From contig NZ_CANLZU010000026.1 of assembly GCF_947495715.1 (NCBI RefSeq), positions 1 through 40,986 on the forward strand: a stretch of 40,986 bases of DNA, given 5' to 3'. The position numbers and the translations under genes are program-made. The notes under the pieces are model-generated. The model saw only the letters and a program-made list of their open reading frames with translations. It made no database searches and was not told the DNA's origin. This document shows, piece after piece, positions 10,976 through 34,654 of the stretch (within the stretch, counting starts at the first letter, position 1; the number at the start of each line of letters is the position of its first letter). Source of the DNA: an uncultured Oceanisphaera sp. (GTDB lineage Bacteria > Pseudomonadota > Gammaproteobacteria > Enterobacterales > Aeromonadaceae).

Positions 10976-11465
10976 TACCAAGCTGATTAAATAACTGATC
11001 TATTTGGTTGCTCTACAAAGGTCGGACAAAGGGCCAGCTCCGCCGACACGCCGTGAATACCTCCATGTAGGCTCCACCGCGCCATCCTTGGCGCGGAGGG
11101 TCGGCGGAGCAGATCCCTTTATCCTCCCTGACGCCAGAGAGTTGCCTGTAGGCGACATCTGCGGACAACTCGGTGTTCCAGAAGAGGCAACAGAGAACGG
11201 CTCCCACGACCGTGAAATGCCAAGGCCGGAAAATGCTCCTGCCGTTCCGGCATTCCCGCCCTCCCTGGCGGTCAGACGGCATTTCCGAGCCCCTATGGGG
11301 CAGCTTGCTGCCGTATATCTTTGTTGGGTAATGGACCAAATATCCAGTGAATATTCGCAGCCGTTATCCAGCAAAGATGGCTAGCCCAGTGGCGTATCGT
11401 GGGAGGCGGCTGTGTTGCCTCTGATCTGAGGCCTTAATATGACCAGATCATTACTGGGGTTGGTA
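10976..11465 (+). mobile_element. Structured MITE-like repeat, copy A (490 bp, intact ends)
   Basis: Ends are TACCAA (10976-10981) and TTGGTA (11460-11465), each flanked by TTA (10973-10975 and 11466-11468) as a 3-bp target duplication. Inside are three structured parts. Module 1 (11024-11124): outer stem GGACAAAGGG with CCCTTTATCC, next stem GCTCCGCCGAC (11037-11047) with GTCGGCGGAGC (11100-11110), inner hairpin CCGCGCCA-TCCT-TGGCGCGG (11077-11096). Linker hairpin: GTTGCCTGTAG (11141-11151) with CTGCGGACAAC (11159-11169). Module 2 (11183-11422): AGAGGCAACAGAG with CTGTGTTGCCTCT, enclosing CTCCCACGA with TCGTGGGAG and GAAATGCC with GGCATTTC. This copy has about 90 bp extra in module 2. No convincing protein is encoded. 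It fills most of the gap between convergent kdsA and the slipin gene. Family unknown to me. Confidence 0.85.
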
Positions 11466-11472
11466 TTACATA

Positions 11473-11494
11473 GCCCCACTGAAGTGGGGCCTAC
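11473..11494 (-). repeat. REP-like palindrome with GTAG head
   Basis: On the minus strand: GTAGGCCCCACTTCAGTGGGGC, that is, GTAG plus a near-perfect palindrome with a short loop, quoted here only as arms GCCCCACT/AGTGGGGC. This is the layout of REP sequences mobilised by RAYT transposases. It sits five bases beyond repeat copy A. A weak CCACAG/CTGTGG hairpin with TTTT follows at 11503-11528. Confidence 0.6.
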
Positions 11495-11549
11495 AAGGTG
11501 ACCCACAGAAAAATCTGGCTGTGGTTTTAACGTTTTACCCCCCTAGGGA

Positions 11550-12353
11550 TCAGGTGATCTCGCTGGGTGACTGGGGATCTTTCGGTGCAGCGGCCGGCTC
11601 TATGATGGGCTGCAGCAGCTTGCCCAGATCCATCGGCAGTGGAAACACGATGATCTTGCTGTTGTCGTTGGTAATTTCGGTCAACGTCTGCAGATAACGC
11701 AATTGTATCGCTTCCGGCTGCTGGCCCAGCATGCGAGCGGCTTCCAGCAACTGCCTGGAGGCTTCCAGCTCACCGGTGGCGTGAATGACCTTGGCCCGAC
11801 GCGACCGTTCGGCCTCGGCCTGGCGGGCGATGGCGCGGATCATCGACTCGTCCAGATCGACGTGTTTGATCTCTACCGCCGTGACCTTGATACCCCAGTT
11901 GTCGGTGCTCTGATCCAGAATTCGTTGCAAGTCTGCATTGAGGGTGTCCCGGGCCGAGAGGATCTCGTCCAGCTCATGCTGACCCAACACCGATCTCATG
12001 GTGGTCTGGGCCAGCTGACTGGTGGCCTCCAGAAAGTTTTCGATATTGATGATGGCCTTCTGCGGATCCAGCACCCGGAAATAGAGCACCGCATTCACCC
12101 GTACCGTGACGTTGTCTCTGGAGATCAGATCCTGCGACGGCACGTCCATGGTAATGATACGCAGATCGACCCGCACCATTTGCTGCACGAAGGGGATCAG
12201 GATGATGAAACCGGGCCCCTTTATCTTGTAAAAACGCCCCAGCAGGAAGATCACCCCCCGTTCGTATTCCCGCAGTATTCGAAACATGCTGGCAAACAGC
12301 ATCACCACCAGGATCACTATCAGCAGCTGGAAGTAGAGAAAATCGATGATCAT
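11550..12353 (-). CDS. Slipin (stomatin-like SPFH protein)
   Basis: 267 residues. A single N-terminal membrane segment (residues about 5-27) leads into the SPFH domain ([20 protein letters not shown], then [11 protein letters not shown]) and a charged coiled-coil ([17 protein letters not shown]). The C-terminal tail is short and Pro-rich. Slipins form membrane-associated oligomers that organise lipid domains. In prokaryotes they pair with NfeD proteases that cleave their C-terminal region. The ATG overlaps the nfeD stop by 4 bp (ATGA), so the two are co-translated. It resembles the p-stomatin group more than QmcA or HflK, but the subgroup call is inference. Confidence 0.9.
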
Positions 12354-13726
12354 GACGGAGTCTCCTTCGCCGGAGCGACGTTGAGGGTGAGATCTTCTAC
12401 CGCCAGCACCACTATGGGCTGATGGGCGGCAACGGGTTGCCGGCTGCGGGCCTGCCAGCGTTCGCCCTGCACCATAACGGTGCCGGTGGGGTCAATGATG
12501 GTCAGGGCGATGCCCTGTTCCCCGATCATGGCGTTTGCGCCCGACACCGGCGCGGCATGACGTTGTTTAACCAGCATTCGCACCACCACCAGGATCAGGG
12601 TCAGTGAAAACAGGGTAAAGGCGGCGATAAAAGGCCAGGCCACCCTGAATGCCTGATCCGGGGTGTCGAACAGAAGCACGGATCCGATGACGAAAGCGAC
12701 CAGGCCACCACCGCCCAGAATACCGAAACTGGGAGAGAGCCCCTCGGCCACCATCAATGCGAGTCCCAGCCCCAGCAGGGCCAGTCCGGCGGTACTGAAC
12801 GGCAGCATCTGCAACGCCAGCAAGGCCAGCATCAGGCAGATGGCGCCGGTGACCCCGGCCACGCCGAAGCCGGGGCTGTAAAACTCCAGCAGGAGACCAT
12901 AGACGCCGACCAGCATCAGCAGATAGGCGATATTGGGGTTGCTGATGGTGATGATAAAGCGCTGGCGCCAGTCGGGCTGGCGCTGCTCGCCCTGCAGTCC
13001 GGAGCTGGCAAAGGTATAGCTGCTGCCGTGTAGCTCCAGTGTGCGACCGTCAAGGCCCTGCAGCAGGGCCGGTATATCGTCGGCGATCAGCTCGATGACA
13101 TTTTTGTCCAGCGCCTCGGTGGCGGTGAGAGTAGCGGCATCGCGTACCGCCAGCTCGGCCCAGTCGGCGTTGCGTCCGCGCAGCTGGGCCAGAGAACGAA
13201 TATAGGCGATGGCATCGTTCAGGGTCTTGCGTTCCATGGCGGTGCTACCGGGAGACGACGTATCCTGCGGGTCTTCGTCTTCACTCTTGTCTGTGCTCTT
13301 GTCTTTTTCGGTCGGTGTACCAGGCAGGGAGGGGCCGCCTATCTGCACCGGCGTGGCCGCGCCCAGATGGGTACCCGGCGCCATGACGGCCACATGGCTG
13401 GCATAGAGAATATAGGTGCCGGCCGAGGCGGCACGGGCGCCACCGGGTGACACATAGACCACGACCGGTATGCGTGATTCCAGTATGGCGGTGATGATGT
13501 CCCGGGTGGCGCTGTAAAGGCCACCGGGGGTGTCCATGTTCAGCAGTACGAAGGCGGGTTTCTCTGTCTGTGCCTGATTCAGCTCGGTGACGATAAAGTC
13601 CGAGGTGCCGGGGCCGATGCCGCCCTTGACGTCAAGCTGCCAGTAACGCTCTTGCGCCAACGCCTGCATTCCCAGCCCCAGCCACAATAACAGCACTAAC
13701 AATAATAACGGCCCACGCCAGCTCAT
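12350..13726 (-). CDS. NfeD-family membrane-bound serine protease (ClpP-class)
   Basis: 458 residues, the long NfeD1b type. A signal peptide (residues 1-24) is followed by a ClpP/SppA-like protease domain with DTPGGL (65-70) and the catalytic Ser101 in [11 protein letters not shown]. The general-base Lys is probably the one in [15 protein letters not shown]. An acidic low-complexity insert ([15 protein letters not shown]) precedes that helix. Four to five membrane helices then lead to a C-terminal OB-fold NfeD domain ([25 protein letters not shown]). Partner of the overlapping slipin gene, which is its probable substrate. GGAG lies eight bases before the ATG. Confidence 0.92.
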
Positions 13727-13812
13727 CTTATTTTCTCCAGTTCCATCCTCATTAGAGCTTAGTGCATGACATCGGTTTGGTTGTTATTTGACCGCCTTTG
13801 GGGGCTCAATCC

Positions 13813-14082
13813 CGGACAAAGAGCCCGCTCCACCGACCCGCCGTGAATCCATCCATGGAGGCTCGACGGCGCCATCCATGGCACCAACGGTCGCTGGAGC
13901 AGATCCCTTTGTCCTCCTTGATGTATTGGCGTCTCCTGTTGGCATCGTCAACCGGATACTCAGTTGTCAAGAAGAGACGGCAGGGATTGGCTCAGCCGAC
14001 CATCACATGCCACGGATGGCATGTGTGAGCGTTACATATATGTACTTGTAGCGTGTCGGAAGAGGTAACCCTGATGTCTCTT
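13813..14082 (+). repeat. Structured repeat, copy B (about 270 bp, no terminal repeats)
   Basis: Same architecture as copy A but with diverged sequence and without recognisable TACCAA/TTGGTA ends. Module 1 (13813-13916) is closed by GGACAAAG with CTTTGTCC. The next stem is GCTCCA-c-CGACC with GGTCG-c-TGGAGC, and CGCCGT pairs with ACGGCG around the CCATGG centre. Module 2 (13972-14082) is closed by AAGAGAC..CAGGG with CCCTG..GTCTCTT. Its sequence is unlike the AGAGGCAAC arm of the other copies, yet it pairs. Inside are CCGAC with GTCGG and the hairpin CACATGCC-acggat-GGCATGTG. It fills the divergent gap between nfeD and the acetyltransferase gene. Short ORFs across it look spurious. Confidence 0.75.
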
Positions 14083-14123
14083 TGTACGTACTAGCAAACC
14101 AGTAGACTTGTGGCTAGGAGAAA

Positions 14124-14146
14124 GCCGTCAGCATTATGCCGACGGC
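14124..14146 (+). repeat. 23-bp interrupted palindrome upstream of the GNAT gene
   Basis: GCCGTC-a-GCAT-t-ATGC-c-GACGGC: a near-perfect inverted repeat with a single a/c mismatch, flanked by AAA and a later CTTT. It lies 67 bp before the GNAT start. It could be a REP-like element, an operator or a transcript hairpin; nothing decides which. The remainder of 14083-14212 shows nothing else. Confidence 0.5.
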
Positions 14147-14212
14147 GGACTTTGCTTTACCATTTACCGCCATGTAACGAGCATTGGCCGACATGCAGGC
14201 CCGGGAGTGAGA

Positions 14213-14650
14213 ATGAAGATAAGAGCGGCGACCAAGGCCGATTTGGGTGAGGTCTTTCGGCTGGAGCTGGGAGGCTTTGGTGAACACGGCTATCCTGATT
14301 TTTTTATTCGTCAGGCGCTTGATCTGTGGCCGGGCACCCTGCTGGTGGCGGAAAGCGAAGCGGGGCTTGTGGGATATGCCCTGGGCAGCATGGGCGAGGC
14401 GAAAGAGCAGGGCTGGATTCTGTCGCTGGCGGTGGATGAACGGCAGCGGGGCCTGGGGATCGGCAGGGCATTGCTGCAACGATTGCTGGCCGAGCTGGCA
14501 CAGCGCGGCTGTTGCGAGCAACGCTTGACCGTACACCCGAATAACCCGGCGGCGGGACTCTACCGCTCGCTGGGATTTGAATTTGAGACTGAGGAGCCGG
14601 ATTATTTCGGACCCGGCGAACCCCGGCAGGTCTTGCTGCGCCGGGGATAA
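14213..14650 (+). CDS. GNAT-family N-acetyltransferase (RimI-like)
   Basis: 145 residues from the ATG at 14213, preceded by GGGAG. The N-terminus is MKIRAATKADL. The acetyl-CoA binding motif A is LAVDERQRGLGIGRALLQRL (R/Q-x-x-G-x-G/A), and motif B follows around NPAAGLYRSLGFE. It transfers an acetyl group from acetyl-CoA to an amine; the order of motifs resembles RimI-like protein acetyltransferases, but the substrate is unknown. An in-frame start further upstream (14108) would add 35 residues unlike any GNAT and would run through the palindrome, so I rejected it. Convergent with viaA with a 7-bp gap. Confidence 0.85.
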   Translation: MKIRAATKADLGEVFRLELGGFGEHGYPDFFIRQALDLWPGTLLVAESEAGLVGYALGSMGEAKEQGWILSLAVDERQRGLGIGRALLQRLLAELAQRGCCEQRLTVHPNNPAAGLYRSLGFEFETEEPDYFGPGEPRQVLLRRG

Positions 14651-14657
14651 ACGGCCA

Positions 14658-16085
14658 TTACTGCAGGCGTGCGGCCTGCTCCAGGCTTTTCCAGTCGCTG
14701 AACAGATGCACCGGATCGCATAGCTGGCTCATGGCGTGCAGGGCGGTGGCATAGCCAAGCTGTAACCCGAACAGGCGCACCCCCTGCTTTTCCTTGGCCT
14801 GGTCTACCTGCTGGCGCAGGGCGGCGTCGACCTGAAACTCGCCGTCGCTCACCAGCAGAATATCCGCCTGCTGCCAGCCTTGCTGCTGCAGCCGCTGCAA
14901 GGCCGCCTGCAGCGGCGTATTGACGTCGGTGCCGCCGCTGAAGGAGCCGCGCAGCATGTCCAGCAGCTCGGGCAGGGTCAGTGTTTGGTTATCCAGGGTC
15001 AGCAGTTCATCGGCGCCGCCGAACAGGTAGATAAGACAACCTCGATTCTGTTTTTTGGCCAGGCGCAGGGTTTCAAGCACCAGCGCTTTCGAGACCTGCT
15101 CTGCCATGCCGTGCATGGAAGCCGAGGTATCCAGACACAGAATAAGGGGTCCCTGTTGCAGACCCTGACCGGCACCTTCGCCCTTGCCGGAGCGGGGAGA
15201 CGTCCAGTCGTTGCCGGCGTCGATGGGCATGACCCCGGCCACCGCATAGCTGAGTAATCCCTGCTCGGCCCGGCGGGCATGCCACAGCATGTGCAGTACC
15301 TCGTGGCCCATGAAGGCCGCCTCCAGCGGCAGCATACGGGCCAGATTGTCGGAGCGGGTAATGCCCTGGGTTTCCATCGGAACACCGGGTATTTTTCGCT
15401 CCTGCGGACCTTGCTCCTTCGGGCTCATCTGCTGCATCAGCCGGCTCAGGCTGGCGCTTTGCTCCGGGTTCGGCCTTTGCTGGCCCAGCAACTGCAGCAG
15501 GCGCTGCAATGGCTGAATTTGTGCCACCCACTGACTGAGCCGCAACAGATCAAACCAGGCGCGATCGCGTAGCTGGCCGCTGTTCTGGTCGGTGCCGATG
15601 GCCGGGGCTATGCCCAGCTCTTCCGCCACCTGATCCAGTGACTGCCACAGGCTGACCCTGTGCTGCCACTGTTCGGCCAGCTTGTTCAGCTCGCTGCGAG
15701 TATGGCGTGCCCGGGCGCGGGCTTGTGCCAGGCTGGCCGGAGTTCCGTGCAGCGTCAGCCCTATGGCGGTGGCCGGCCAGCTCAGCTCTACCTGCTCCAG
15801 CGCCAGCAGAATGTCCTGCACCACCGCCTGGGCCACTTCCGGGGTTTGCTTGCAGTAATCCAGCGCGCCGGAGCGCACCAGTAACTGGCGAAGTCGGCGT
15901 TCGGTACTGCTGTTGAGCCAGCTACCGGGCCGGGGCAGTTTGCCCTTATCCAGTTGTTCCAGCATGTGTTGCACCTGGGTGGCCCTGGGCAGCAGGCTGC
16001 CGATCGGGTGGGTCACCACCAGCGCAAACAGGTGTTCCGGAATCGATGCCAGTGGGCTCAGTCCGGGCGGCAAAGGGGCGCTCAC
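14658..16085 (-). CDS. viaA: VWA-domain protein ViaA
   Basis: 475 residues from a GTG at 16085 with GAGGA just upstream, beginning three bases after the ravA stop. A long helical N-terminal region precedes a C-terminal von Willebrand A domain. The metal-site motif is DTSAS (Asp319) in LILCLDTSASMHG, and the later MIDAS Thr lies in SGGTDVNTPL. ViaA partners the MoxR-type AAA+ ATPase RavA; in E. coli the pair is linked to respiratory complexes, membrane lipids and aminoglycoside entry. Similarity to E. coli ViaA is clear in the VWA half and low in the N-terminal half, so identical function is inference. Confidence 0.85.
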   Translation of the reverse strand: MSAPLPPGLSPLASIPEHLFALVVTHPIGSLLPRATQVQHMLEQLDKGKLPRPGSWLNSSTERRLRQLLVRSGALDYCKQTPEVAQAVVQDILLALEQVELSWPATAIGLTLHGTPASLAQARARARHTRSELNKLAEQWQHRVSLWQSLDQVAEELGIAPAIGTDQNSGQLRDRAWFDLLRLSQWVAQIQPLQRLLQLLGQQRPNPEQSASLSRLMQQMSPKEQGPQERKIPGVPMETQGITRSDNLARMLPLEAAFMGHEVLHMLWHARRAEQGLLSYAVAGVMPIDAGNDWTSPRSGKGEGAGQGLQQGPLILCLDTSASMHGMAEQVSKALVLETLRLAKKQNRGCLIYLFGGADELLTLDNQTLTLPELLDMLRGSFSGGTDVNTPLQAALQRLQQQGWQQADILLVSDGEFQVDAALRQQVDQAKEKQGVRLFGLQLGYATALHAMSQLCDPVHLFSDWKSLEQAARLQ

Positions 16086-16088
16086 GGG

Positions 16089-17543
16089 TCAGTCCTCGAC
16101 CGGCAGGGCGGCAAAGTCACGGTGCAGCTGTTGCAACCGTTCCCGTTGCTGTTGCAATTGCTGTTGCTGCCGCTCCAGCTGGCGCGTCGCCTGAGTGGCC
16201 AGATCCTGCTCCAGCCACAGGTGCTGGCGCAGGCGCTCGCTCAGGCCGTTCAGCTGCTGACCCAGCCAGCCGAGATAATGGGTCAGCTCGTCGATACGTT
16301 CATCGAGCTGGCGCAGACGCGAGGCGATGTGCGTCGCCGGCCAGGCCTTGGGCTGCAGGGCGGTGGGGCGCTGATAGCTTTCCAGCAGCGGCTGGTATTG
16401 GTCCAGACTGCCGCCGAGGTTGCGAATTTCATCGGCGGTAAAGCTGGCGTCCGGCAACCGGGGCTGACGAAAGAGGGGCTCGCCCCTGGCATTGCGGCGC
16501 GGGCGCTGGCCCCGGGCTTCGGTGACCGGCTGGCCCTGCTCGTCCAGATAGAGCTGATAGCCCTGTTCGTTCAATGCCGGCAGCACAGGATCCGCATCCT
16601 GCTCCAGCCGTTGCTGCCAGCTGTCGACCAGCTCGGTGATCAGTTCGGGGCTGAAGCCCGGATCGGCGGCGATGTGCCGGTGCAGCCAGTCGTTCAGTTG
16701 CTCGAACTGCTCCGGTTGCTGCCACAGGCAGTGGGGCAACAACCAGGCATCAAACAGGCCGGCTTCGGTCTCGCCATTGCAGAAGGCGGACACCTTGAGC
16801 AGCTTGACCACCTTGCGCCAGCGTCGATCCGACACCGGAATATCCTGCTCGGCCAGAAAGGCACGCAGGCTGTGCAGCAGCCGGATCAGCGCATCGGCCA
16901 GCTGCAGTTGCTCGGCGCCGTCGCGAATGGCACTCAGATCGTCCCGGCTCAGGCATTGCTCGGGCGAGGGTGCTTGATAATCGTGATTCAGGGTCAGCAG
17001 GGCGGTAAAGCTGTCGTCCTGTATCGGCGCCACCTGAAAACGCAGCAGAAAACGGTCGTATAGCGCGTTCAGCTCGGCTCCGTCGGGCAGCTCGTTGCTG
17101 GCGGCGATCACCGAAACCAGCGGCACTCGCACCCGTTCGCTGCCGTTGTCGAACTGGCGTTCGTTGAGCAGGGTCAGCAGGCTGTTGAGGATGGCGCTGT
17201 TGGCCTTGAAGATTTCGTCGATAAAGGCGATGGCGGCTTCCGGCAGGTAGCCTTTGGTCTGGCGCAGGTAACGGTCCTGCTCCAGCGCCTTGATGGACAG
17301 CGGGCCGAACAGTTCTTCCGGTACCGAAAAGCGGGTCAGCCGCCGCTCGAAGTAACGGCCGTCATCCACCAGGGTGTGCAGGCGGCGGGCCAGTTCACTC
17401 TTGGCGGTACCGGGTGGGCCCAGCAGCAGCAGGTGTTCACCGGACAGGGCCGCCAGCAACGCCAGCCTGGCTGGGGTGTCCCGTTCCAGCAGCCCTTGCT
17501 GCAAATGGTTGATTAATGCTGCGATACGGGGTTTTACGACCAT
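16089..17543 (-). CDS. ravA: MoxR-family AAA+ ATPase RavA
   Basis: 484 residues. The AAA+ core has Walker A GPPGTAKS (42-49), Walker B AIAFIDEIFK, sensor AASNELP and the following LYDRFLLRF. RavA's own tripartite C-terminal region replaces the usual MoxR lid and ends in a Gln-rich coiled-coil (QLERQQQQLQQQRERLQQL). It works as a hexamer with ViaA. It lies 76 bp downstream of fadE on the same strand. That gap contains TTGAGT, an 18-bp spacer and TAATAC, which may be its own promoter. In E. coli ravA-viaA lies elsewhere, so the location beside fadE is a local rearrangement. Confidence 0.88.
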   Translation of the reverse strand: MVVKPRIAALINHLQQGLLERDTPARLALLAALSGEHLLLLGPPGTAKSELARRLHTLVDDGRYFERRLTRFSVPEELFGPLSIKALEQDRYLRQTKGYLPEAAIAFIDEIFKANSAILNSLLTLLNERQFDNGSERVRVPLVSVIAASNELPDGAELNALYDRFLLRFQVAPIQDDSFTALLTLNHDYQAPSPEQCLSRDDLSAIRDGAEQLQLADALIRLLHSLRAFLAEQDIPVSDRRWRKVVKLLKVSAFCNGETEAGLFDAWLLPHCLWQQPEQFEQLNDWLHRHIAADPGFSPELITELVDSWQQRLEQDADPVLPALNEQGYQLYLDEQGQPVTEARGQRPRRNARGEPLFRQPRLPDASFTADEIRNLGGSLDQYQPLLESYQRPTALQPKAWPATHIASRLRQLDERIDELTHYLGWLGQQLNGLSERLRQHLWLEQDLATQATRQLERQQQQLQQQRERLQQLHRDFAALPVED

Positions 17544-17619
17544 GTGCCAGACCTGTAAGTTAATTGTATTAAATGTATATCATTATTGTACTCAAAAAGC
17601 CTCGAGTGACCAGCATCAA

Positions 17620-20064: not shown

Positions 20065-20096
20065 CAATAACTCCTTTTACCGGCATCAGTGCGGCT

Positions 20097-20113
20097 GTGA
20101 GGTCTGACCTGTT
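20097..20113 (-). promoter_or_regulatory. FadR-type operator at fadE
   Basis: Plus-strand bases 20101-20113 read GGTCTGACCTGTT, which fits the core and right arm of the FadR site pattern (A-A-C-T-GGTC-N-GACC-T-G-T-T). The four left-arm bases do not match well. The operator lies 33 bp upstream of the fadE ATG and about 10 to 25 bp downstream of the start expected from the promoter at 20126-20154. This position suits repression relieved by long-chain acyl-CoA. Confidence 0.7.
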
Positions 20114-20125
20114 TGGGTGCTCCTA

Positions 20126-20882: not shown

Positions 20883-20887
20883 GCGAT

Positions 20888-21701: not shown

Positions 21702-22018
21702 TACCAATCTCACTAAACAAATGATCTATTTCATTTTTGTATAAAAGTCGAACAAAGGGCCCGCTCCCCCGACTCGCCGTGAATCCCTCCCTGGAGGCTC
21801 AGCCGCGCCATCCGTAGCGCGGATGGTCGGCTGAGCAGATCCCTTTGTCCTCCTTGATGCACCGGCGTTGTCTGTTAGCGCCACCTACAGACAACTCGAT
21901 GCTTGAGAAGAGGCAACAGAGATCGACTACCACGACCGTGAAATGCCATGGACGGCATTTCCCGAGCCCTCAGGGATGAGTTCATGGCGTGTCGTGGGAG
22001 GCTGCTGTGTTGCCTCTG
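21702..22018 (+). repeat. Structured MITE-like repeat, copy C (about 317 bp, right end lost)
   Basis: Left end TACCAA (21702-21707), preceded by TAA and followed by the family's CT.A.TAAA..AATGATCTATTT. Module 1 (about 21751-21850): GCTCCCCCGAC pairs with GTCGGCTGAGC (nine of eleven), with inner CCGCGC/GCGCGG. Linker hairpin: GTTGTCTGT with ACAGACAAC, nine perfect pairs. Module 2 (21909-22017): AGAGGCAACAGAG with CTGTGTTGCCTCT, CACGA with TCGTG, and AAATGCCATGGACGGCATTT as a hairpin. No TTGGTA end follows; the sequence runs into the purN terminator. It occupies the convergent yafJ/purN gap. Confidence 0.8.
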
Positions 22019-22047
22019 GAACCATGATTTATCTGCATTCACACAAC

Positions 22048-24827: not shown

Positions 24828-24830
24828 GTC

Positions 24831-24855: not shown

Positions 24856-24879
24856 CCGTTTGTTCAAGGTAAATAAAAG

Positions 24880-26148: not shown

Positions 26149-26211
26149 GTCTGGTTTGCATTCATGTCTGTGGTTATCATGCGCCTCATGCTTTTCAAAA
26201 GTGGTAACTTG

Positions 26212-27198: not shown

Positions 27199-27913
27199 CG
27201 GCGATGAAGAAGATAACCAGCCAGCCCAGTTGGCGCTGGCGGTACAGCTGCCGGATGATGAAACCTTTGCCAGTTTTTATCCGGGCGATAACGCCCAGCT
27301 GATCACCGCCCTTAAAAATGCGGCCATCGGTCAGGGTGACGAGCTGCTGTATTTCTGGGGGCAGCAGGGCAGTGGCCGCTCTCACCTGCTGCATGCCGCC
27401 TGTGCCGAGCTGGATGGGGAAGGTGAGACCGCGGCCTATATTTCGCTCGACAGCTATCAGAACATGTCGACGCGCATACTGGACGGCATGGAGCTGCTGG
27501 CGCTGGTGTGTCTGGATAATCTGGATGCCATTGCCGGGGTGGCAGAGTGGGAGCGGGCCGTGTTCAACTTCTTCAATCGCCGCCGCGAGCGGGCGCCGGG
27601 CTCCCTGGTGATCAGTGCCATCAACGCGCCGCGCAACCTGGGGCTGGCACTGCCGGATCTGGCCTCGCGCCTCGATTGGGGCGTGGCCTATCAGCTGAAA
27701 CCGCTGGATGATGAAGGCAAGCTCAGTGCCCTGCAGCTGAGAGCCGAATTGCGCGGCTTCAAGCTGCCCACCGATGTGGGCCGCTTTCTGCTCAATCGGT
27801 TATCCCGCGACATGAGTACCCTGCTTGCGGCTCTCGATCTGCTCGACAACGCTTCTTTTCAGGCCAAACGCAAACTCAGCATTCCCTTCGCCAAGGAAAT
27901 ACTGGGGCTGTAG
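27191..27913 (+). CDS. hda: DnaA regulatory inactivator Hda
   Basis: 240 residues from a GTG at 27191 that overlaps the DUF2066 gene's stop by 8 bp. No in-frame ATG is available near the start. AAA+ protein that, bound to the DNA-loaded sliding clamp, stimulates hydrolysis of DnaA-bound ATP after initiation. The Walker A region is GQQGSGRSHLLHAA, with Arg in place of Lys as in E. coli; sensor and arginine-finger text LPDLASRLDWG is intact. The clamp-binding segment reads QLALAVQL where E. coli has QLSLPLYL, so the Pro is missing. LPDDETFASFYPGDN follows as usual. Confidence 0.93.
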   Translation: MINGDEEDNQPAQLALAVQLPDDETFASFYPGDNAQLITALKNAAIGQGDELLYFWGQQGSGRSHLLHAACAELDGEGETAAYISLDSYQNMSTRILDGMELLALVCLDNLDAIAGVAEWERAVFNFFNRRRERAPGSLVISAINAPRNLGLALPDLASRLDWGVAYQLKPLDDEGKLSALQLRAELRGFKLPTDVGRFLLNRLSRDMSTLLAALDLLDNASFQAKRKLSIPFAKEILGL

Positions 27914-28030
27914 CGGGGCTGATAACCTGCATTTATATGTAATACCGAGCCCATTTATGCGGCGCAAACTTGCAGGTAACGGTATGTCTGCAAGAACTGC
28001 ATATCGCCTGACGGTCTCGCGTGGTCTGAT

Positions 28031-28145
28031 CCGCCAGCTGAAGCGGCGGCTACAAAACCGCAAGCCAGCTCGTCCCGTAGGGTCCATTTCAATGGACCAG
28101 CCTGACCTGAGAGCCATACCTCTGGTCGAATAAATTCGACCCTAC
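28031..28145. repeat. Cluster of three GTAG-headed REP palindromes
   Basis: Three palindromes, each with a GTAG head on one strand. At 28031-28053 (minus): GTAG then CCGCC..GGCGG. At 28077-28098 (plus): GTAG then GGTCCATT/AATGGACC. At 28124-28145 (minus): GTAG then GGTCGAAT/ATTCGACC. Head-to-head and tail-to-tail REPs form BIME-like clusters in other genomes. They lie between convergent hda and xthA; 27914-28030 holds nothing else I can name. Confidence 0.65.
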
Positions 28146-28204
28146 GAAGAAAGAGATACTCATCAGCAAGTATCTCTTATTCCCATCCCGATCCAATGTA
28201 TCCC

Positions 28205-29011
28205 TCAGCCAAAAGTGGCCCAGATGGGGGCGTGATCCGAGGGCTTTTCGATACCGCGCAGCTCGTAGTCGATACCGGTGTCGATCAACTGCTCGACCAG
28301 CGGCCGGGTGGCGAGGATCAGGTCGATGCGCAGGCCGCGGTTGTCGTTGAAGCCCTTGCTGCGGTAGTCGAACCAGGAATACCGCGCGCTCTCTTCCGGG
28401 TTCTGCAGCCGCCAGGTGTCGATCAGTCCCCAGCCCATCAGCGTGTTCATCCATTCCCGTTCTTCCGGCAGAAAGGAGCACTTACCCTCGCGCAGCCAGC
28501 GTTTGCGGTTGGGCTCGCCGATGCCGATATCCAGATCGGTATGGGAAATATTCACGTCTCCCATCACGATAACCGCGTCATCCGGCTGATGGTGCTCGGT
28601 CAGATAGCGTTGCAAATCTGCATAAAAGCGGGTCTTGGCCGGAAACTTGGTTTCGTGGCTGCGGTTTTCGCCCTGAGGGAAATAACCGTTGAGCACGGTC
28701 AGCACGCTTCCGTCGGGGCGGGCGAAACGGCCCATGATCATGCGTCGCTGGGCATCTTCTTCATCACCGGGAAAGCCCTTCTGGATTGCAAGCGGGGCCT
28801 GCTTGCTCAGCATGGCCACGCCGTAATGAGCTTTCTGGCCATGAAAGTGCACGTGATAGCCCATGGCTTCCACGGCGGCCAGCGGAAAGGCGTCGTCGTG
28901 AACCTTGATTTCCTGCAGACCTATGATGTCCGGCTGGTGTTTGTCGATAAGCGCCTGCAACTGGTGCAAACGCGCCCTGAGTCCATTGATATTGAAGGAA
29001 ACAACTTTCAT
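28205..29011 (-). CDS. xthA: Exonuclease III
   Basis: 268 residues, the same length as E. coli Xth. AP endonuclease and 3'-5' exonuclease on double-stranded DNA in base-excision repair. All active-site elements are in place: FNINGLRA (Asn7), LQEIKVHD (metal-binding Glu34), [28 protein letters not shown] and the C-terminal [10 protein letters not shown]. Monocistronic, convergent with hda. Confidence 0.97.
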
Positions 29012-29060
29012 TACGGCGCCCGATACAAAAAAGAGGGCGCCATGCTAGCAGAAACCGGGG

Positions 29061-29822
29061 TCAGTCGGCAGTCGCCCCGTCCGGATAGATCATCCGTTTG
29101 CTCATGCCGCCGTCGATAATATATTCCTGACCGGTAATAAAGCCGGCCTCGTCGGATAACAGAAATCGCGCCAGCGCCGCCACATCGTCGACGTCACCCA
29201 CCCGGCCGGCCGGGTGCAGGCCGTGATCGTGCCGGCTGGGCGCCGGCTCCATGGGGTTTGGCTGCAGCCGACTCACATCAATCCAGCCCGGGCTGATGAC
29301 ATTGACCCTCACATCCGGCCCCAGGCTGATGGCCATGGCATGCGTCAGGGCGATGAGTCCGCCCTTGGCGGCAGCATAGGCCTCGCTGTCGGGCTCGGAC
29401 TGATGCGCCCGGGTCGAGGCGATATTGATGATGGACCCGCCCGGCTTGAGCAGGGGGGCCACATGCTTGCTGATCAGCATGGGGCCGGTAAGGTTGACCG
29501 CCAGCACCCGCTGCCAGTGCGACAGGGGGAGCTGAGCCAGTGGTTCATGATGGGGCTGGCTGATGGCGGCGTTGTTGATGATGCCATCGATCTGCCCGAA
29601 CTGACGTTCAATCAGTCGGCTCAGCGCCTGTACCGAGGTTTCTTCGCTGACATCGAGGTGAACCAGTTGCAGGCCGGGCAATCCGGCGTCGTCCAGCCGG
29701 GTGAGGGCATCCTTGTCGATATCGACCCCCACTACCTGATAGTTGTGTTGCAGAAAGTAGCGGCTCATGCCCAGTCCCAGCCCCTGGGCTACCCCGGTGA
29801 TCAGAATTTTTCCCTGCTTCAT
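29061..29822 (-). CDS. SDR-family NAD(P)-dependent oxidoreductase
   Basis: 253 residues from the ATG at 29822, five bases after a perfect AAGGAG; the longer ORF start is not needed. Classical short-chain dehydrogenase: cofactor loop TGVAQGLG near residue 10, NNAA near 85, catalytic Ser in INIASTRAH and YAAAK, then SPGWIDVSR and the C-terminal GQEYIIDGGMS. The acidic residue at the end of beta-2 (GVDIDKD) suggests NAD(H) preference. Substrate unknown. Divergent from the RND pump operon. Confidence 0.9.
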   Translation of the reverse strand: MKQGKILITGVAQGLGLGMSRYFLQHNYQVVGVDIDKDALTRLDDAGLPGLQLVHLDVSEETSVQALSRLIERQFGQIDGIINNAAISQPHHEPLAQLPLSHWQRVLAVNLTGPMLISKHVAPLLKPGGSIINIASTRAHQSEPDSEAYAAAKGGLIALTHAMAISLGPDVRVNVISPGWIDVSRLQPNPMEPAPSRHDHGLHPAGRVGDVDDVAALARFLLSDEAGFITGQEYIIDGGMSKRMIYPDGATAD

Positions 29823-29862
29823 ACTGTCTCCTTGACGAGGCTCCTGCCGGCTTGTGGTGTCT

Positions 29863-29894
29863 TCGATTAAGCCCTGTTGCATCCTCGACTAAGC
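29863..29894. promoter_or_regulatory. Pair of 10-bp direct repeats in the SDR / RND-pump divergent region
   Basis: TCGATTAAGC at 29863-29872 and TCGACTAAGC at 29885-29894, nine of ten bases shared, 22 bp apart (two helical turns). This could be a tandem operator for a regulator encoded elsewhere. No regulator gene is adjacent. Confidence 0.3.
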
Positions 29895-29999
29895 GTAGTG
29901 GGGTTTTGTCACACTTTGTTACCTCTTTGCCGGTAGCTGACATAGTCTGGCCGCACTAAACGGGTACACTAGGTCCAATATGCACAAAGGAATAAAAAC

Positions 30000-31034
30000 A
30001 TGTTTCGTCATCACCATCACTCCGGTCTCTGGTTGATCTGCCTGTTGAGCCTGTCGATCATGACGCCGAGCGCGGTACTGGCCCGCAGTGCGCCGCTGGT
30101 CTCTACGGTACGGGTCACCGAGCAGCCGGTGACGGCCGGCATTGAACTGATTGGTACCCTCAAGGCCAGTCAGCAGGTGGCCATTTCTCCCCAGGTCAGT
30201 GCCCGGGTGACCAGGGTGCACTTCGTGCCCGGCCAGATGATCGCTCGGGATCAGCTGTTGCTCAGCCTGGATGACAGAGCCGCACAGGCGACGGTACGCG
30301 AAGCCGAAGCGGTGCTGATGGACGCCCGTCGTGTGCTTAACAACTTTCAGACCCTGTTCCGGCGCAAGGCGGTCACCCAGACCGAGCTGAACGGCCAGCA
30401 GGCGGTGGTGGCCATGGCCGAGGCCAAGTTGCAGGCGGCTCGCGTGCAGGCGGACTATCTGACCATCAAGGCCCCTTTTGGTGGTGTGATAGGATTGAGC
30501 GATGTGGCGCCCGGCGCCCTGCTCGGGGCCAACGAACCGGTGGCAAACCTGCTTGATGTGAGCAGCCTCAAGCTGGATCTGGCGGTACCGGAAAAATATT
30601 TTCGTCTGCTCAAGGTGGGTGAGCAGTTGAGCGCTCACACCCAGGCCTATGGCGAGCAGACCTTTATCGGTGAGCTGGCGGTCATTGCCCCCCGCGTGGA
30701 TGAAGACACCCTCAACGCCCGGGTTCGCTTGCTGTTTGATAACAGCGAGGGACTGCTGGTGCCGGGCATGCTGATGCGGGTGCAGCTGAGGGTAGATAAC
30801 AACACCCAGGCGGTGATTCCGGCGCAGAGCCTGCTTTATGCGGGCCAGCAGCGCTATGTGTTTGTGGTGGATGACGAGGGCAAGGTCAGTCGGCGCAACG
30901 TGAGCATAGGCCGCAACCTGGGGGAGCGGGTGACCATTACCGACGGACTGACCCTTGGCGAGCGGGTGATCAGCGAAGGCACGGTCAAGGTACGCAGCGG
31001 CATGCAGGTGGAGGTACAGAGTGAAGCTCTCTGA
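30000..31034 (+). CDS. RND efflux periplasmic adaptor (membrane fusion protein)
   Basis: 344 residues. N-terminal signal peptide (residues about 10-29, ending VLARS), then the HlyD/AcrA order: barrel-lipoyl half (GTLKASQQVAISPQVSARV), helical hairpin (REAEAVLMDARRVLNNFQ), second lipoyl half (IKAPFGGVIGLSDVAPGALL) and beta-barrel/membrane-proximal domain. No lipobox Cys is seen, so it is probably soluble or anchored by an uncleaved signal. Good ribosome site AAAGGA. It overlaps the permease gene by 14 bp. It would bridge the permease to a TolC-type channel encoded elsewhere. The short hairpin resembles VexC or MexH-type adaptors. Confidence 0.93.
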   Translation: MFRHHHHSGLWLICLLSLSIMTPSAVLARSAPLVSTVRVTEQPVTAGIELIGTLKASQQVAISPQVSARVTRVHFVPGQMIARDQLLLSLDDRAAQATVREAEAVLMDARRVLNNFQTLFRRKAVTQTELNGQQAVVAMAEAKLQAARVQADYLTIKAPFGGVIGLSDVAPGALLGANEPVANLLDVSSLKLDLAVPEKYFRLLKVGEQLSAHTQAYGEQTFIGELAVIAPRVDEDTLNARVRLLFDNSEGLLVPGMLMRVQLRVDNNTQAVIPAQSLLYAGQQRYVFVVDDEGKVSRRNVSIGRNLGERVTITDGLTLGERVISEGTVKVRSGMQVEVQSEAL

Positions 31035-34000
31035 TCTGTCTATCTCCCGCCCGGTACTGGCTACGGTACTGAGCCTGATGTTGTGCGTATTCGGGCTGAT
31101 TTCCTTTCTTGAGCTGCCGCTTCGGGAAATGCCCGACACCACCTCGCCGGTGGTGACGGTACGCACCGATTATACCGGTGCCAGCGCCGGCGTGCTGGAG
31201 ACGCAGGTCACCAAGCGACTGGAAGACGAGTTGTCGGGCATCAGCGGGGTCAAATTTATCAGCTCCAGCACCAGTGACGGCCGCTCCAGCATCACCATCG
31301 AGTTCGATCCGGCGCGAAACCTGGACAACGCCGCCAGCGATGTACGCGAAGCGGTGGCCCGGGCGTCCCGCGGCCTGCCCGATGATGCCGACGCTCCCAT
31401 CGTCACCAAGGACACGGGGCGCAACGATGTCATCTTGTGGGTAACGCTGCGTTCTACCGGTATGTCGCCACTGGCACTGGGGGATTATGCCCAGAACGTG
31501 CTGGCCGATCGTTTCAGCCTGCTCGACGGCGTCAGCTCGGTCTGGGTCGGTGGTCGCAAGGAGCGGGTGATGAACGTGCGGCTCGATCCGGTGGCCATGG
31601 CCTCGCGCGGGGTCACGGTGGCCGATATTCGCGCCGCCTTGCGTGCCCAGAACGTGGAGTTGCCGGCCGGCACCCTGGAAAACAGCCAGCAGAACTTCGC
31701 CGCCCGCATTCAGCGTGGTTACGATCAGGCGGTAAACTTCCAGACCCTGAGCATTCGCCGCATTGACTCGGGGGCTCGGGTCTATCTGGGCGACGTGGCC
31801 GAGATCTGGGAAGGAGAAAAGCCGGAAGATACCCTGTTTCGCTCCAACGGCCAGAACGTGGTGGGGCTGGGCATCGTCAAGCAGACTCAGGCCAATACCC
31901 TGGATGTGGTGAACGAGGTCAAGCAGGCGATTATTGCCCAGCAGCCCTTTCTGCCGGCAGGGGCCGAACTGACCTGGACCTACGACAGTTCGGTGTTTAT
32001 CGACAGCGCCATCAGCGAGGTCTATCAGACCCTGATGATCACGGTGGGGCTGGTGATACTGGTGATTTACATCTTTCTGGGGCAGGTGCGCGCCACCCTG
32101 ATCCCGGCGGTAACGGTGCCGGTGTCGCTGGTCAGTGCCTTTATCCTGGCCTATGCGCTGGGTTACTCGGTCAACCTCATTACCCTGATGGCGCTGATCA
32201 TGGCCATCGGCCTGGTGGTGGATGATGCCATTGTAGTATTGGAGAACATTCACCATCACCTGGAGCGGGGCCGTTCACCGCTGGCGGCGGCCTATCACGG
32301 TGCGCGCGAGGTGGGGTTTGCGGTGATCGCCACCACCCTGACCCTGGTATCGGTATTTCTGCCCATCGTGTTCATGGGCGGCATCATAGGCCGTATTTTT
32401 ACCGAATTTGCGATATTGCTGGCCGGAGCCGTAGCTTTTTCGTCGCTGGTGGCGCTGACCCTGACCCCGGTAATGGCCAGCAAGATCCTCAAGCCCAAAC
32501 AACAACCGGGCTGGCTGGCGAGCCGTTTCGATGCAGGCTTTGCCCGACTGGAACAGGGCTATCGGCGCCTGCTCGGCAGCGAGCTGAGTCATCGCTGGTG
32601 GGCACCGGTGGCCATGGTGCTGGCGCTGGGGTTCATTACCCTGTTGTTTCGAGAAGTACCGCAGAGTCTGACTCCGAAGGAAGACCGTGGCGTGATCTTC
32701 GTGTTGGTGCGTGGGGCCGAAGGGGCCAGCTTCGAGCGCATGAGCCGGGCCATGGGGGAGGTGGAAGCGCGCCTGGCGCCTTTGCAGCAGGATGGCACCG
32801 TTACCAGCCTGACGGTCCGCACTCCCGGCTTCGGTGGCGGGGTGAACAGCGGTATCGTCATCGCCAGCCTGGAAGCCTGGGATAAACGCGAGCCCTCGGC
32901 CGAAGCCGTTGTCGGGCGTATTCGCGGCCTGACCCGGGACGTGGCCGATGTACTGGTGATTCCGATACTGCCTTCGTCCATTCGGGGCGGCTCCAGCTCA
33001 CCGGTGGAGTTTGTGCTGGGCGGGGCCGACTACGACGAACTCTATGGCTGGGCCGAACAGTTGCAGCGGCTGGCGCGGGATAACCCGGGTCTGAGTGATC
33101 TGGATCTGGATTATGCCCAGACCAAACCCGAGCTGCTGGTGGAAGTGGATCAGCAGCGGGCGGCCAAGCTGGGGATTTCGGTAACCGAGGTGGCCGACAG
33201 TCTCAATGTCATGCTCGGCGGCCAGGGCATTACCACCTATGCCCGCCAGGGGGAAGAGTACGATGTCTATCTCAAGGGGCAGCAGGACGCCTTCAGGCAG
33301 CTCAGTGATCTGGGCGGCATCTACCTGCGCACCGGCGGCGGCGAGCTGGTGTCGCTGGACAACCTGGTCACCCTGAACGAGCAGGGGGCTTCGCCTTCCC
33401 TTAACCATTACAATCGCAAGAAGGCGATTACCCTCAGCGCCAACCTGGTCGGCAACTATAGCCTGGGTGAGGCGCTGGATTATCTGGACGGCCTGGTGCG
33501 CGAGCAGCTGCCCGACAATGCCACTGTCGATTACAAGGGCGAGTCGCTGGAGTACAAAAGCAATCAGGGCGATGTGGCCTTCGTGTTCGGGCTGGCGCTG
33601 GTGGTGGTGTTTCTGATCCTGGCGGCCCAGTTCGAGAGCTTTGTGCATCCTTTTATCGTGCTGCTGACGGTACCCCTTGGCCTGCTCGGTGGCCTGCTGG
33701 GGCTGTATTTTACCGGTATGACCCTTAACGCCTACAGCCAGATAGCCATGGTGATGCTGATAGGATTGGTGACCAAAAACGGCATTCTGATCGTGGAGTT
33801 TGCCAACCAGCTGCGTGACCGGGGGCAGCCGTTTGCCGAGGCGTTAATCGAGGCGTCGGTGCGACGTCTGCGGCCCATTCTGATGACCGCCTTTACCACG
33901 GTGGCGGGCGCGATTCCACTGATCCTGGCCAGCGGTGCCGGCGCCGAAAGTCGGCAGGCGGTGGGTATAGTGGTGTTTGCCGGCGTGGCACTGGCGACCC

Positions 34001-34116
34001 TGCTGACGCTGTTTATCGTGCCCGCCATGTACCGGTTGCTGGCGCGGCACACTCAGTCGCCGGAGCATCAGCAACGACGGCTGGAAGCGGCGCTGAAGGA
34101 AAAGCCTGAAGGATAG
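31021..34116 (+). CDS. RND-family multidrug efflux permease (HAE1-like)
   Basis: 1031 residues from a GTG at 31021 with GGAGG six bases upstream. Twelve membrane helices in two halves with two large periplasmic loops (about 40-330 and 560-860). The proton-relay aspartates lie in TM4 (AIGLVVDDAIVVLENI). N-terminal SISRPVLATVLSLMLCVFGLISFLELPLREMP and the later VTKNGILIVEFANQLRD are typical of the AcrB/MdtC/VexD-type branch. It pumps amphiphilic compounds out in exchange for protons; the actual substrates are unknown. No outer-membrane channel or regulator gene is next to it. Confidence 0.94.
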   Translation: MKLSDLSISRPVLATVLSLMLCVFGLISFLELPLREMPDTTSPVVTVRTDYTGASAGVLETQVTKRLEDELSGISGVKFISSSTSDGRSSITIEFDPARNLDNAASDVREAVARASRGLPDDADAPIVTKDTGRNDVILWVTLRSTGMSPLALGDYAQNVLADRFSLLDGVSSVWVGGRKERVMNVRLDPVAMASRGVTVADIRAALRAQNVELPAGTLENSQQNFAARIQRGYDQAVNFQTLSIRRIDSGARVYLGDVAEIWEGEKPEDTLFRSNGQNVVGLGIVKQTQANTLDVVNEVKQAIIAQQPFLPAGAELTWTYDSSVFIDSAISEVYQTLMITVGLVILVIYIFLGQVRATLIPAVTVPVSLVSAFILAYALGYSVNLITLMALIMAIGLVVDDAIVVLENIHHHLERGRSPLAAAYHGAREVGFAVIATTLTLVSVFLPIVFMGGIIGRIFTEFAILLAGAVAFSSLVALTLTPVMASKILKPKQQPGWLASRFDAGFARLEQGYRRLLGSELSHRWWAPVAMVLALGFITLLFREVPQSLTPKEDRGVIFVLVRGAEGASFERMSRAMGEVEARLAPLQQDGTVTSLTVRTPGFGGGVNSGIVIASLEAWDKREPSAEAVVGRIRGLTRDVADVLVIPILPSSIRGGSSSPVEFVLGGADYDELYGWAEQLQRLARDNPGLSDLDLDYAQTKPELLVEVDQQRAAKLGISVTEVADSLNVMLGGQGITTYARQGEEYDVYLKGQQDAFRQLSDLGGIYLRTGGGELVSLDNLVTLNEQGASPSLNHYNRKKAITLSANLVGNYSLGEALDYLDGLVREQLPDNATVDYKGESLEYKSNQGDVAFVFGLALVVVFLILAAQFESFVHPFIVLLTVPLGLLGGLLGLYFTGMTLNAYSQIAMVMLIGLVTKNGILIVEFANQLRDRGQPFAEALIEASVRRLRPILMTAFTTVAGAIPLILASGAGAESRQAVGIVVFAGVALATLLTLFIVPAMYRLLARHTQSPEHQQRRLEAALKEKPEG

Positions 34117-34145
34117 AAAGCTGAAAGCGGTAAGCGCGAAGCTAT

Positions 34146-34178
34146 AAAGCACCGGGCTTGTGAGCTCGGTGCTTTTTT
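34146..34178 (+). terminator. RND pump operon terminator
   Basis: AAAGCACCGGGCT pairs with AGCTCGGTGCTTT (one G-T pair) around loop TGTG, then Ts, 29 bases after the permease stop. Confidence 0.88.
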
Positions 34179-34198
34179 AGGGTCGAATTTATTCGACC
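34177..34198 (+). repeat. REP-like palindrome with TTAG head
   Basis: TTAG followed by GGTCGAAT-tt-ATTCGACC, the same palindrome as at 28124-28145 but with TTAG in place of GTAG. Its head overlaps the T run of the upstream terminator. Confidence 0.6.
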
Positions 34199-34223
34199 AG
34201 AAACCGAGGCACTATCCTAAAGC

Positions 34224-34654
34224 GGTCGAATAATACCAACCTAAGTAAAAATATGATCTATTTTAAAGCTCGGAACGAGAGGCAACAGAGTCACCTCCCA
34301 CTACACGCAATAAACCCATCCATGGGAGCTCGGAAATACCGTCCCTGGCATTTCACGGTCGTGGGAGCCGATCTCTGCTGCCTCTCCTGAAGCACCGAGT
34401 TGTCTGCAGGGCACTCCCACAGGCGACGCCGCAGCACAGGGGCGGATGAAGGGTTCTACTCCAGCGACCATCACATGACAGGTCACCAAAGGCTCCTGCA
34501 ATGCTGACACTCCCGCCATCCTTGGCGGTCGGACGTCATGTGCTGAGCGTCGCAGGGATGCGGTTTTGTCGGTGGAGTGGACCCTTTGTTCGACCTTTAC
34601 AGGGCAGCTAAACAGACCAGTTAGTTTTACAGATTGGTATAAATTCGACCCTAC
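34224..34654 (-). repeat. REP palindrome split by repeat copy D
   Basis: The left part GGTCGAATAA (34224-34233) and right part TAAATTCGACCCTAC (34640-34654) join, with one TAA removed, to give exactly the 22-bp GTAG-headed palindrome found at 28124-28145. The 406-bp copy D lies between them. It is therefore an insertion into a REP with a 3-bp TAA duplication. Confidence 0.8.
34234..34639 (-). mobile_element. Structured MITE-like repeat, copy D (406 bp, intact, inverted orientation)
   Basis: Ends TACCAA (34234-34239) and TTGGTA (34634-34639), flanked by TAA on both sides. Internally it runs opposite to copies A-C. Module 2 comes first (34278-34385): AGAGGCAACAGAG with CTCTGCTGCCTCT, CTCCCAC with GTGGGAG, and a CCCAT..ATGGG hairpin. 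The linker hairpin follows (GAGTTGTCTGCAGGGC side near 34397). Module 1 comes last: read on the minus strand, ACTCCA-c-CGAC pairs with GTCG-c-TGGAGT, with an inserted CCGCCA-AGGA-TGGCGG hairpin. The minus-strand left end reads AAGGTCGAACAAAGGG as in copy C. No credible protein. It fills most of the gap between the RND operon and the tRNA-Tyr pair; 34655-34701 shows nothing more. Confidence 0.87.

What the first reader, a model, noticed from the sequence alone, without database searches (positions are those of the whole stretch)
10976..34639. A multi-copy structured intergenic element whose stems covary between copies
Four gaps carry the same three-part structure. The closing arms change while pairing is kept. 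Module 1, second stem: GCTCCGCCGAC/GTCGGCGGAGC (A), GCTCCA.CGACC/GGTCG.TGGAGC (B), ACTCCA.CGAC/GTCG.TGGAGT (D). Module 2 closing stem: AGAGGCAACA/TGTTGCCTCT (A, C) but AAGAGAC..CAGGG/CCCTG..GTCTCTT in B. Linker: GTTGCCTGTAG/CTGCGGACAAC (A) and GTTGTCTGT/ACAGACAAC (C). Compensatory change implies selection or replication through a folded form, as RNA or single-stranded DNA. Four copies in 41 kb suggest a very abundant genomic family. I know of no described family with this layout.
Basis: seen in the sequence. Interest (0 to 1): 0.88.

Follow-up and report, generated by a model that had tools for sequence, protein, structure and literature searches.

The report
Jumping DNA carrying CsrA-like RNA hairpins
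The four repeats are copies of a small non-coding jumping element whose cargo is a folded unit, also found in other gamma-proteobacteria, with two hairpin loops that match the docking signal of the global RNA-binding regulator CsrA, so the element may be scattering regulator-binding sites around genomes.

Summary
Confirmed and extended. The four gaps carry copies (A, D complete; B, C truncated) of one element, TACCAA...TTGGTA, with a 3-bp TNA target duplication; a relative's empty site proves insertion of copy A. The genome has 180 such ends, control 0. Modules 1 and 2 are inverted copies of one ~73-nt two-hairpin fork, the centre of the published Yersinia repeat YPAL/RU-2. It occurs in 44 of 229 class genomes (own included); all 16 matching genomes of a 299-genome phylum sample lie in the class. 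Covariation is strong (18 of 20 pairs; 0.805 against 0.192 shuffled). New: both loops read CANGGANG, the CsrA/RsmA motif, in 83 of 88 cores, 23 nt apart in 75; G-U exceeds A-C on that strand, 52 to 18 distinct events, which points to RNA. Further hairpin units sit at GG^A. Against: that strand is mostly antisense to flanking genes, and csrA presence does not separate the genomes. Best reading: a non-autonomous transposon dispersing a CsrA-bindable fold. Mobility is shown; CsrA binding is inferred; no transposase partner was found.

The parts
10976..11465 (+). copy A, complete element TACCAA...TTGGTA; target duplication TTA at 10973-10975 and 11466-11468
   Evidence: empty site in G016
11038..11109 (-). 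copy A, core 1 (module 1; CANGGANG loops on the minus strand)
   Evidence: covariance model R1, E 3.6e-20; loops
11141..11169 (+). copy A, linker hairpin (GTTGCCTGT.../...ACAAC)
   Evidence: sequence; pair counts over the family
11200..11405 (+). copy A, core 2 (module 2), both loops occupied by inserts
   Evidence: comparison with insert-free copies
11226..11275 (+). insert U1 in the P1 loop of core 2 at GG^A
11299..11387 (+). insert U2 in the P2 loop of core 2 at GG^A (3' limit approximate)
   Evidence: comparison by eye with L132 and insert-free copies
13758..14100 (+). copy B, decayed, no terminal repeats found; core 1 about 13827-13900 (-), core 2 about 13989-14060 (+)
21702..22020 (+). 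copy C, left end TACCAA present, right end missing; core 1 21764-21835 (-), core 2 21927-22000 (+)
34234..34639 (-). copy D, complete element; target duplication TAA at 34231-34233 and 34640-34642
   Evidence: not present at this place in O. litoralis L032
34295..34367 (-). copy D, core 2
   Evidence: model R1, E 3.7e-18
34458..34578 (+). copy D, core 1, with a U1-type insert in its P1 loop
34483..34532 (+). U1-type insert at GG^A in core 1 of copy D, in the same orientation to GG^A as in copy A

Best explanation
Each copy is a non-autonomous transposable element (MITE-like) with ~25-bp terminal inverted repeats (TACCAA...TTGGTA) that duplicates 3 bp (TNA) on insertion; a transposase not found here must act in trans. 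Its cargo is two inverted copies of a ~73-nt YPAL-type fork: an outer stem, hairpin P1 and hairpin P2, both closed by C-G and ending in an ANGGAN hexaloop, 23 nt apart. On RNA of the CANGGANG strand the two hairpins could be docked by one CsrA/RsmA dimer. Because the cores are inverted, transcription from either side would give one fork in binding orientation unless inserts occupy its loops. The likely effect is titration of CsrA, or CsrA control of transcripts that contain a copy. SHOWN: element ends, target duplication, one empty site, copy number (lower bounds), covariation, loop motif, spacing, wobble bias, nested inserts at GG^A. INFERRED: that the strand is transcribed, that CsrA binds, and any benefit to element or host.
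For: Mobility: 40 of 54 distinct elements (own genome and relatives) have matching TNA bases at both ends (15.3 expected, 0 of 10,000 shuffles; the 54 include a few wrongly bounded entries, kept); empty site TTTTTTACATAG in G016 against filled ...TTTTTA[element]TTACATAG; 180 ends in the genome at up to 2 mismatches, control 0. RNA: in the stems flanking 88 distinct cores, delimited with Watson-Crick scoring only, the CANGGANG strand has 69 G-U and 18 A-C (p 3e-8); 52 to 18 as distinct events, 39 to 8 copies, 13 to 3 genomes. CsrA: 83 of 88 cores have both CANGGANG, and 75 of those 83 a 23-nt spacing; in the class-wide set 70 of 75 have two on this strand and 1 of 75 has the motif on the other. 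TACANGGANGTA occurs 482 times against 38 for the reversed control in 12 genomes picked for their cores. 12 of 14 CANGGANG hairpins (stem of 3 or more) of this window lie in the four copies. CsrA's SELEX consensus RUACARGGAUGU, the ANGGAN hexaloop, and bridging of two sites 10-63 nt apart with an optimum above 18: PMC7652899, passages. The genome has a csrA gene.
Against: Exact 12-nt SELEX consensus: 10 of 75 class-wide cores, 0 of 33 in the relatives' set A3 and 0 of 32 in A1. In A3, which holds cores interrupted by inserts, only 20 of 33 keep two CANGGANG and 5 of 33 have the motif on the other strand. The TACANGGANGTA excess is absent in 2 of the 12 genomes (G127 3 against 0, G161 2 against 2), and its hits were not mapped to cores one by one. 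Between co-directional genes the CANGGANG strand is antisense in 25 of 35 cases (p 0.017, simple ORF caller), so mRNAs mostly carry the complement; Rfam's Ysr224 also models the complement strand. csrA is found in 40 of 44 core-bearing genomes against 154 of 185 others, no clear association, and one near-complete core-bearing genome (G255) shows none. Overall wobble is rare, and the linker hairpin shows no bias (36 to 37). U1 and U2 disrupt both loops of core 2 in copy A. The CsrA review says that very stable structure might be disadvantageous for binding. No transcription data were available.
Confidence: 0.5

Rival explanations
1. A plain nested palindromic MITE. The folds matter only as DNA: palindromes are kept perfect by intramolecular template switching and serve as targets for hairpin-seeking insertion; the conserved loops are recognition sites of the mobilising enzyme (GG^A), and CsrA plays no part.
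For: Flanking stems are nearly perfect palindromes (74 of 89 cores with an extension score of at least 8, 0 of 267 slid controls); orthologous arms in G412 and G447 differ by 3 compensated pairs and 1 broken pair (read by eye); U1 sits at GG^A at three host sites, always in one orientation (25 of 25 followed by A, 24 of 25 preceded by GG); copies A and D themselves sit in what read as GTAG-REP doublets.
Against: A double-stranded or strand-neutral DNA process predicts G-T and A-C in equal numbers (inference); 69 to 18 was seen. A single-stranded DNA intermediate of the same strand could also give this bias, so it is not excluded.
Confidence: 0.35
2. A cis-acting RNA element (stabiliser, attenuator or RNase III site) that affects neighbouring genes through its long stems, not through CsrA.
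For: Stems covary; 70 of 92 class cores are not covered by an ORF of 150 aa or more (simple caller); the MITE review PMC10969869 (passages) mentions such roles for MITE transcripts.
Against: It does not explain why the hexaloops, but not the stems, are nearly invariant across genera, nor the 23-nt spacing.
Confidence: 0.12
3. Chance or alignment artefact.
For: The model was built from these copies, with outer stems chosen by stem-requiring patterns, so its hits lean towards them.
Against: Shuffles, slid controls, reversed-pattern controls and the empty site.
Confidence: 0.01

Closest known systems
YPAL / RU-2 (Yersinia palindromic sequence, ~168 bp)
   Same: Same core: two forked hairpins with AAGGAT and ATGGAT loops, GAGCC between them, then TTTACGGCGTC (sequence in PMC2759123 Table 1b, passages seen); abundant, mobile.
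   Different: The RU-2 sequence shows one core; YPAL is said to have internal inverted repeats and target duplications of 3-26 bp (PMC2229807, passages). Here two inverted cores lie between TACCAA terminal repeats with a 3-bp TNA duplication and carry nested inserts.
Rfam RF02770 Ysr224
   Same: Covariance hit over its full length to copies A and B (29 and 22.3 bits).
   Different: Far below its gathering score of 70; modelled on the opposite strand with another structure.
MITEs with TNA duplications (IS5-family, IS1031-type transposases; recalled, no call)
   Same: Non-coding, terminal inverted repeats, 3-bp TNA duplication.
   Different: No transposase with these ends found: the six DDE_Tnp_1 loci of the own genome are not flanked by them; other transposase families were not searched.
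CsrB/RsmZ-type CsrA-titrating RNAs
   Same: Hairpins with ANGGAN-type loops as CsrA/RsmA sites (PMC7652899 and PMC3791407, passages).
   Different: Those are dedicated sRNA genes; this is a dispersed mobile repeat; binding untested.
GTAG REPs / REPINs (PMC3733652, passages)
   Same: Palindromic, high copy, found nested with this element.
   Different: No GTAG tag seen in the core; copies A and D are inserted between two REP-like palindromes.

Membership tests
MITE (non-autonomous TIR element) | terminal inverted repeats, no coding capacity | tested here: met
   ends; no transposase-length frame between the ends (elements of 245-549 bp)
MITE (non-autonomous TIR element) | target site duplication | tested here: met
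   40 of 54, 15.3 expected; one empty site
MITE (non-autonomous TIR element) | partner transposase with the same ends | tested here: inconclusive
   one Pfam family searched in the own genome, 6 loci, none flanked by these ends; of 24 viral stretches with the end pattern 3 were looked at, no transposase recognised by eye, no family search run
YPAL / RU-2 | forked two-hairpin core sequence | tested here: met
   letters of RU-2 compared by eye with cores; not aligned by a tool
YPAL / RU-2 | ~168-bp unit without terminal repeats and with variable 3-26 bp duplications | tested here: not met
   245-549 bp, terminal repeats, 3-bp TNA
Rfam Ysr224 | gathering score of 70 bits | tested here: not met
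   29 bits for copy A, 22.3 for copy B
CsrA-binding RNA | ANGGAN hexaloop on a stem | tested here: met
   83 of 88 cores with both loops
CsrA-binding RNA | binds CsrA; is transcribed | not testable with these tools
   no assay or transcript data
CsrA-binding RNA | occurs only with csrA | tested here: inconclusive
   40 of 44 core-bearing genomes have csrA, 154 of 185 others

The most novel reading that the evidence does not exclude
A class-wide superfamily of transposable RNA folds (YPAL-type cores) is a mobile reservoir of paired CsrA/RsmA binding sites, probably some hundreds of motif hairpins in this genome alone (extrapolated: at least 150 cores, two motifs in 27 of 32 sampled cores), so that transposons titrate or rewire a global regulator; the hairpin units are themselves mobile and insert into each other's ANGG^AN loops, which switches sites off or adds new ones.
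Probability: 0.37. Interest if true: 0.88.

Novelty: new variant of a known kind. Interest (0 to 1): 0.68.

Why it matters
YPAL was described in 2006 (cited in PMC2229807); the passages I saw name no protein that binds its core. If the loops bind CsrA, a structured repeat seen in 44 of 229 sampled genomes of the class becomes a directly testable regulator sponge and a route by which transposons rewire post-transcriptional control. The nested GG^A inserts also offer a clean natural experiment on hairpin-in-hairpin insertion.

Tried and rejected
Rfam at gathering score: only tRNAs. Plasmids, whole copy A: one Halomonas record, which has a core with U1 in the same loop. Plasmids, core 1: 25 records, of which 15 enterobacterial ones share one stretch; the one fetched carries a core by model R1 (L149, 41 bits); the other 10 are weak. 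A weak Serratia plasmid match to U1 contains no core by R1. Phages: no match. E. coli: 5 of 5,426 genomes, weak. End pattern in viral contigs: 24 stretches; most looked like chance (its output was cut), and the three examined (L110, L114, L115) show no transposase by eye; the rest were not followed. Cores as cis elements read with the upstream mRNA: not supported, antisense preferred (15 to 6, 25 to 10 in the larger set). Pre-existing or newly made palindromes at solo cores: undecided, the G347 site is too diverged. Gradual change against wholesale replacement of stems: undecided; G143 arms look homologous, G412 arms do not (by eye).

Literature: ten searches of this open-access library. No listed paper links YPAL-type repeats with CsrA, but several searches had more hits than were listed (3,192 papers, 15 listed; 68, 10 listed; 23, 8 listed). 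One search (six literal core words) found only PMC2759123. Of the papers opened I saw passages, and for PMC9788540 also abstract and outline; none was read whole. The first report of YPAL (De Gregorio 2006) was not held and is known here only through PMC2229807 and PMC2759123.

Rows dropped and biases: A1 holds 32 of 56 trimmed cores, and those cores were cut out with patterns that require parts of the outer stem; one search found 39 core-1 and 30 core-2 stretches in 54 elements, later calls added some. L148-L150 were left out; one search also left out both L153 cores and the second core of L163. One search is capped at 150 matches and at 21 and 16 per genome, with stricter filters, so copy numbers and genome counts are lower bounds. 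The listing does not show how many of the 299 genomes lie outside the class. A2-A4 were fitted to model R1, so their pair counts lean towards it. Cells and copies are related by descent, not independent.
Full report
What is in the window. The four gaps hold one repeat family. Complete copies run from TACCAA to TTGGTA with ~25-bp terminal inverted repeats. Copies A (10976-11465) and D (34234-34639, minus strand) are complete; C lacks its right end; B lacks both. Sizes seen are about 245, 365, 417, 445, 497 and 549 bp, explained by optional hairpin units.

It is a transposable element. In 40 of 54 distinct elements (own genome and relatives) with both ends the outer TNA triplets carry the same middle base (15.3 expected by shuffling, 0 of 10,000; a few of the 54 are wrongly bounded and were kept). 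In G016, whose contig has the length of an Oceanisphaera arctica contig (47416 bases), the site of copy A is empty: TTTTTTACATAG against TTTTTA[element]TTACATAG here. Copy D is not found at this place in O. litoralis (L032). Both A and D lie inside pairs of palindromes that read as GTAG-REP doublets (by eye; REP class after passages of PMC3733652). The genome has 88 plus 92 end sequences at up to 2 mismatches, none for the reversed pattern. In the first relatives search 33 of 61 genomes, own included, matched. L129 and L142 share the ends but have another interior, so the ends define a mobilised family with more than one cargo. A partner transposase was not found: the six DDE_Tnp_1 loci of the own genome are not flanked by such ends, and other families were not searched.

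The interior is one fork used twice. Module 2 and the reverse complement of module 1 are homologous: CTCCnnCGACC-[P1]-nGAGC-[P2]-TTCAnGGCGTGTCGnnGGAG. A covariance model from 32 such cores (R1) lists 150 cores in the genome, the limit of that listing, the weakest at E 2.6e-16. The Y. pestis RU-2/YPAL sequence printed in PMC2759123 (passages seen) has the same core by eye, so the fold is not new. Rfam's Ysr224 reaches 29 bits on copy A and 22.3 on copy B, gathering score 70 (C and D were not scanned at that threshold).

Covariation. Class-wide (31 cores): 97.9% of cells paired, 18 of 20 pairs with double changes, score 0.805 against 0.192 shuffled and at most 0.128 slid. Second set (44 distinct cores of five genomes): 94.1%, 18 of 20, 0.722 against 0.213; further pair types 43 against 42.8, no excess. 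In other genomes of the class the core sits in a longer palindrome whose arms often differ between copies of the same genome yet pair almost perfectly: 74 of 89 with an extension score of 8 or more, 0 of 267 controls. One orthologous pair, G412 and G447, shows 3 compensated and 1 broken pair (by eye).

RNA or DNA, and which strand. In the arms, delimited with Watson-Crick scoring only, the CANGGANG strand shows 69 G-U, 18 A-C and 45 other mismatches against 1445 Watson-Crick pairs. As distinct events 52 to 18, by copies 39 to 8, by genomes 13 to 3 (p 0.021). In the own family the outer stems lean the same way in each module's own CANGGANG orientation (44 to 20, 13 to 3), while the linker shows none (36 to 37). 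A1-A3 give 34 to 17, but those sets are biased by RNA folding or the RNA model. Strand bias of C-to-T change tied to transcription would work the other way if this strand is mostly the template strand of flanking genes (inference). RNA is the simplest reading; a single-stranded DNA form is not excluded.

The loops. 83 of 88 distinct cores keep CANGGANG in both hairpins, 75 of those 83 at 23 nt; the loops and the GAGC and GCGT joints are the conserved positions while stems vary. CsrA's SELEX consensus is RUACARGGAUGU, RsmE binds ANGGAN hexaloops, and a CsrA dimer bridges sites 10-63 nt apart, best above 18 (PMC7652899, passages). 10 of 75 class-wide cores hold the exact 12-nt consensus and 45 of 75 TACANGGANGTA; in A1 it is 0 and 8 of 32, in A3 0 and 14 of 33, and in A3 only 20 of 33 keep two CANGGANG. 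Across 12 genomes picked for their cores TACANGGANGTA occurs 482 times against 38 for the reversed pattern, with no excess in G127 and G161. Against: csrA presence does not separate the genomes (40 of 44 against 154 of 185; G255 counted as lacking because it is absent from the printed list of hits), and the motif strand is antisense to co-directional neighbours in 25 of 35 (51 of 92 cores had a neighbour on each side within 300 nt, and 22 of 92 are covered by an ORF of 150 aa or more by the same simple caller). The bias could mean that sense insertions, which would put CsrA sites into mRNAs, are selected against; that is inference.

Nested inserts. A ~50-bp unit U1 occurs 25 times in the 54 elements, at three different host sites: the P1 loop of core 2 (23), the P1 loop of core 1 in copy D, and a stem foot of core 1 in L079. 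It is always followed by A, is preceded by GG in 24 of 25, and has one orientation to GG^A. A ~85-bp unit U2 sits in P2 loops at GG^A, and once, inverted, in core 1 (L132) (by eye). A Halomonas plasmid has a core with U1 in the same loop. U1 carries its own CANGGANG hairpin on the opposite strand.

Verdict. An ordinary vehicle (MITE) with a known kind of cargo (YPAL core) in a composite layout for which I found no description in the searches named above, plus a testable idea about what the cargo does. Mobility and structure are firm; CsrA binding is a motif-level inference at about even odds. On checking, the odds for the best explanation were lowered from 0.52 to 0.50 and for the novel case from 0.38 to 0.37, because the copy-number extrapolation and the A3 and two-genome exceptions had been left out.

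Noticed in passing
window 37271-37308, minus strand: Two CANGGANG hairpins 20 nt apart, apparently just upstream of the start of a DCC1-like thiol-disulfide oxidoreductase gene, the second near a Shine-Dalgarno-like GGAGG: could be an ordinary CsrA-regulated leader (start codon inferred).
   Followed up: partly
window 10945-10968 with 11469-11495; 34178-34230 with 34643-34654: REP-like doublets (GTAG type by eye) that serve as insertion sites of copies A and D.
   Followed up: partly
L197 788-2152 (G466): Six tandem 227-bp units; the unit read holds a YPAL-type core and a GTAG-type REP-like hairpin.
   Followed up: no
L129 249-383; L142 412-566: 135-155 bp elements with the same TACCAA ends (one with TAGCAA) but another interior (GTCATCCTGACGAAAGTCAGGATC hairpin), one with an extra hairpin.
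   Followed up: no
L189-L191 (G095): Larger elements that enclose a core between inverted ends such as AACTGTTCCGAAAT.
   Followed up: no
window 34738-34822 and 34915-34999: Two identical tRNA-Tyr genes in tandem.
   Followed up: no
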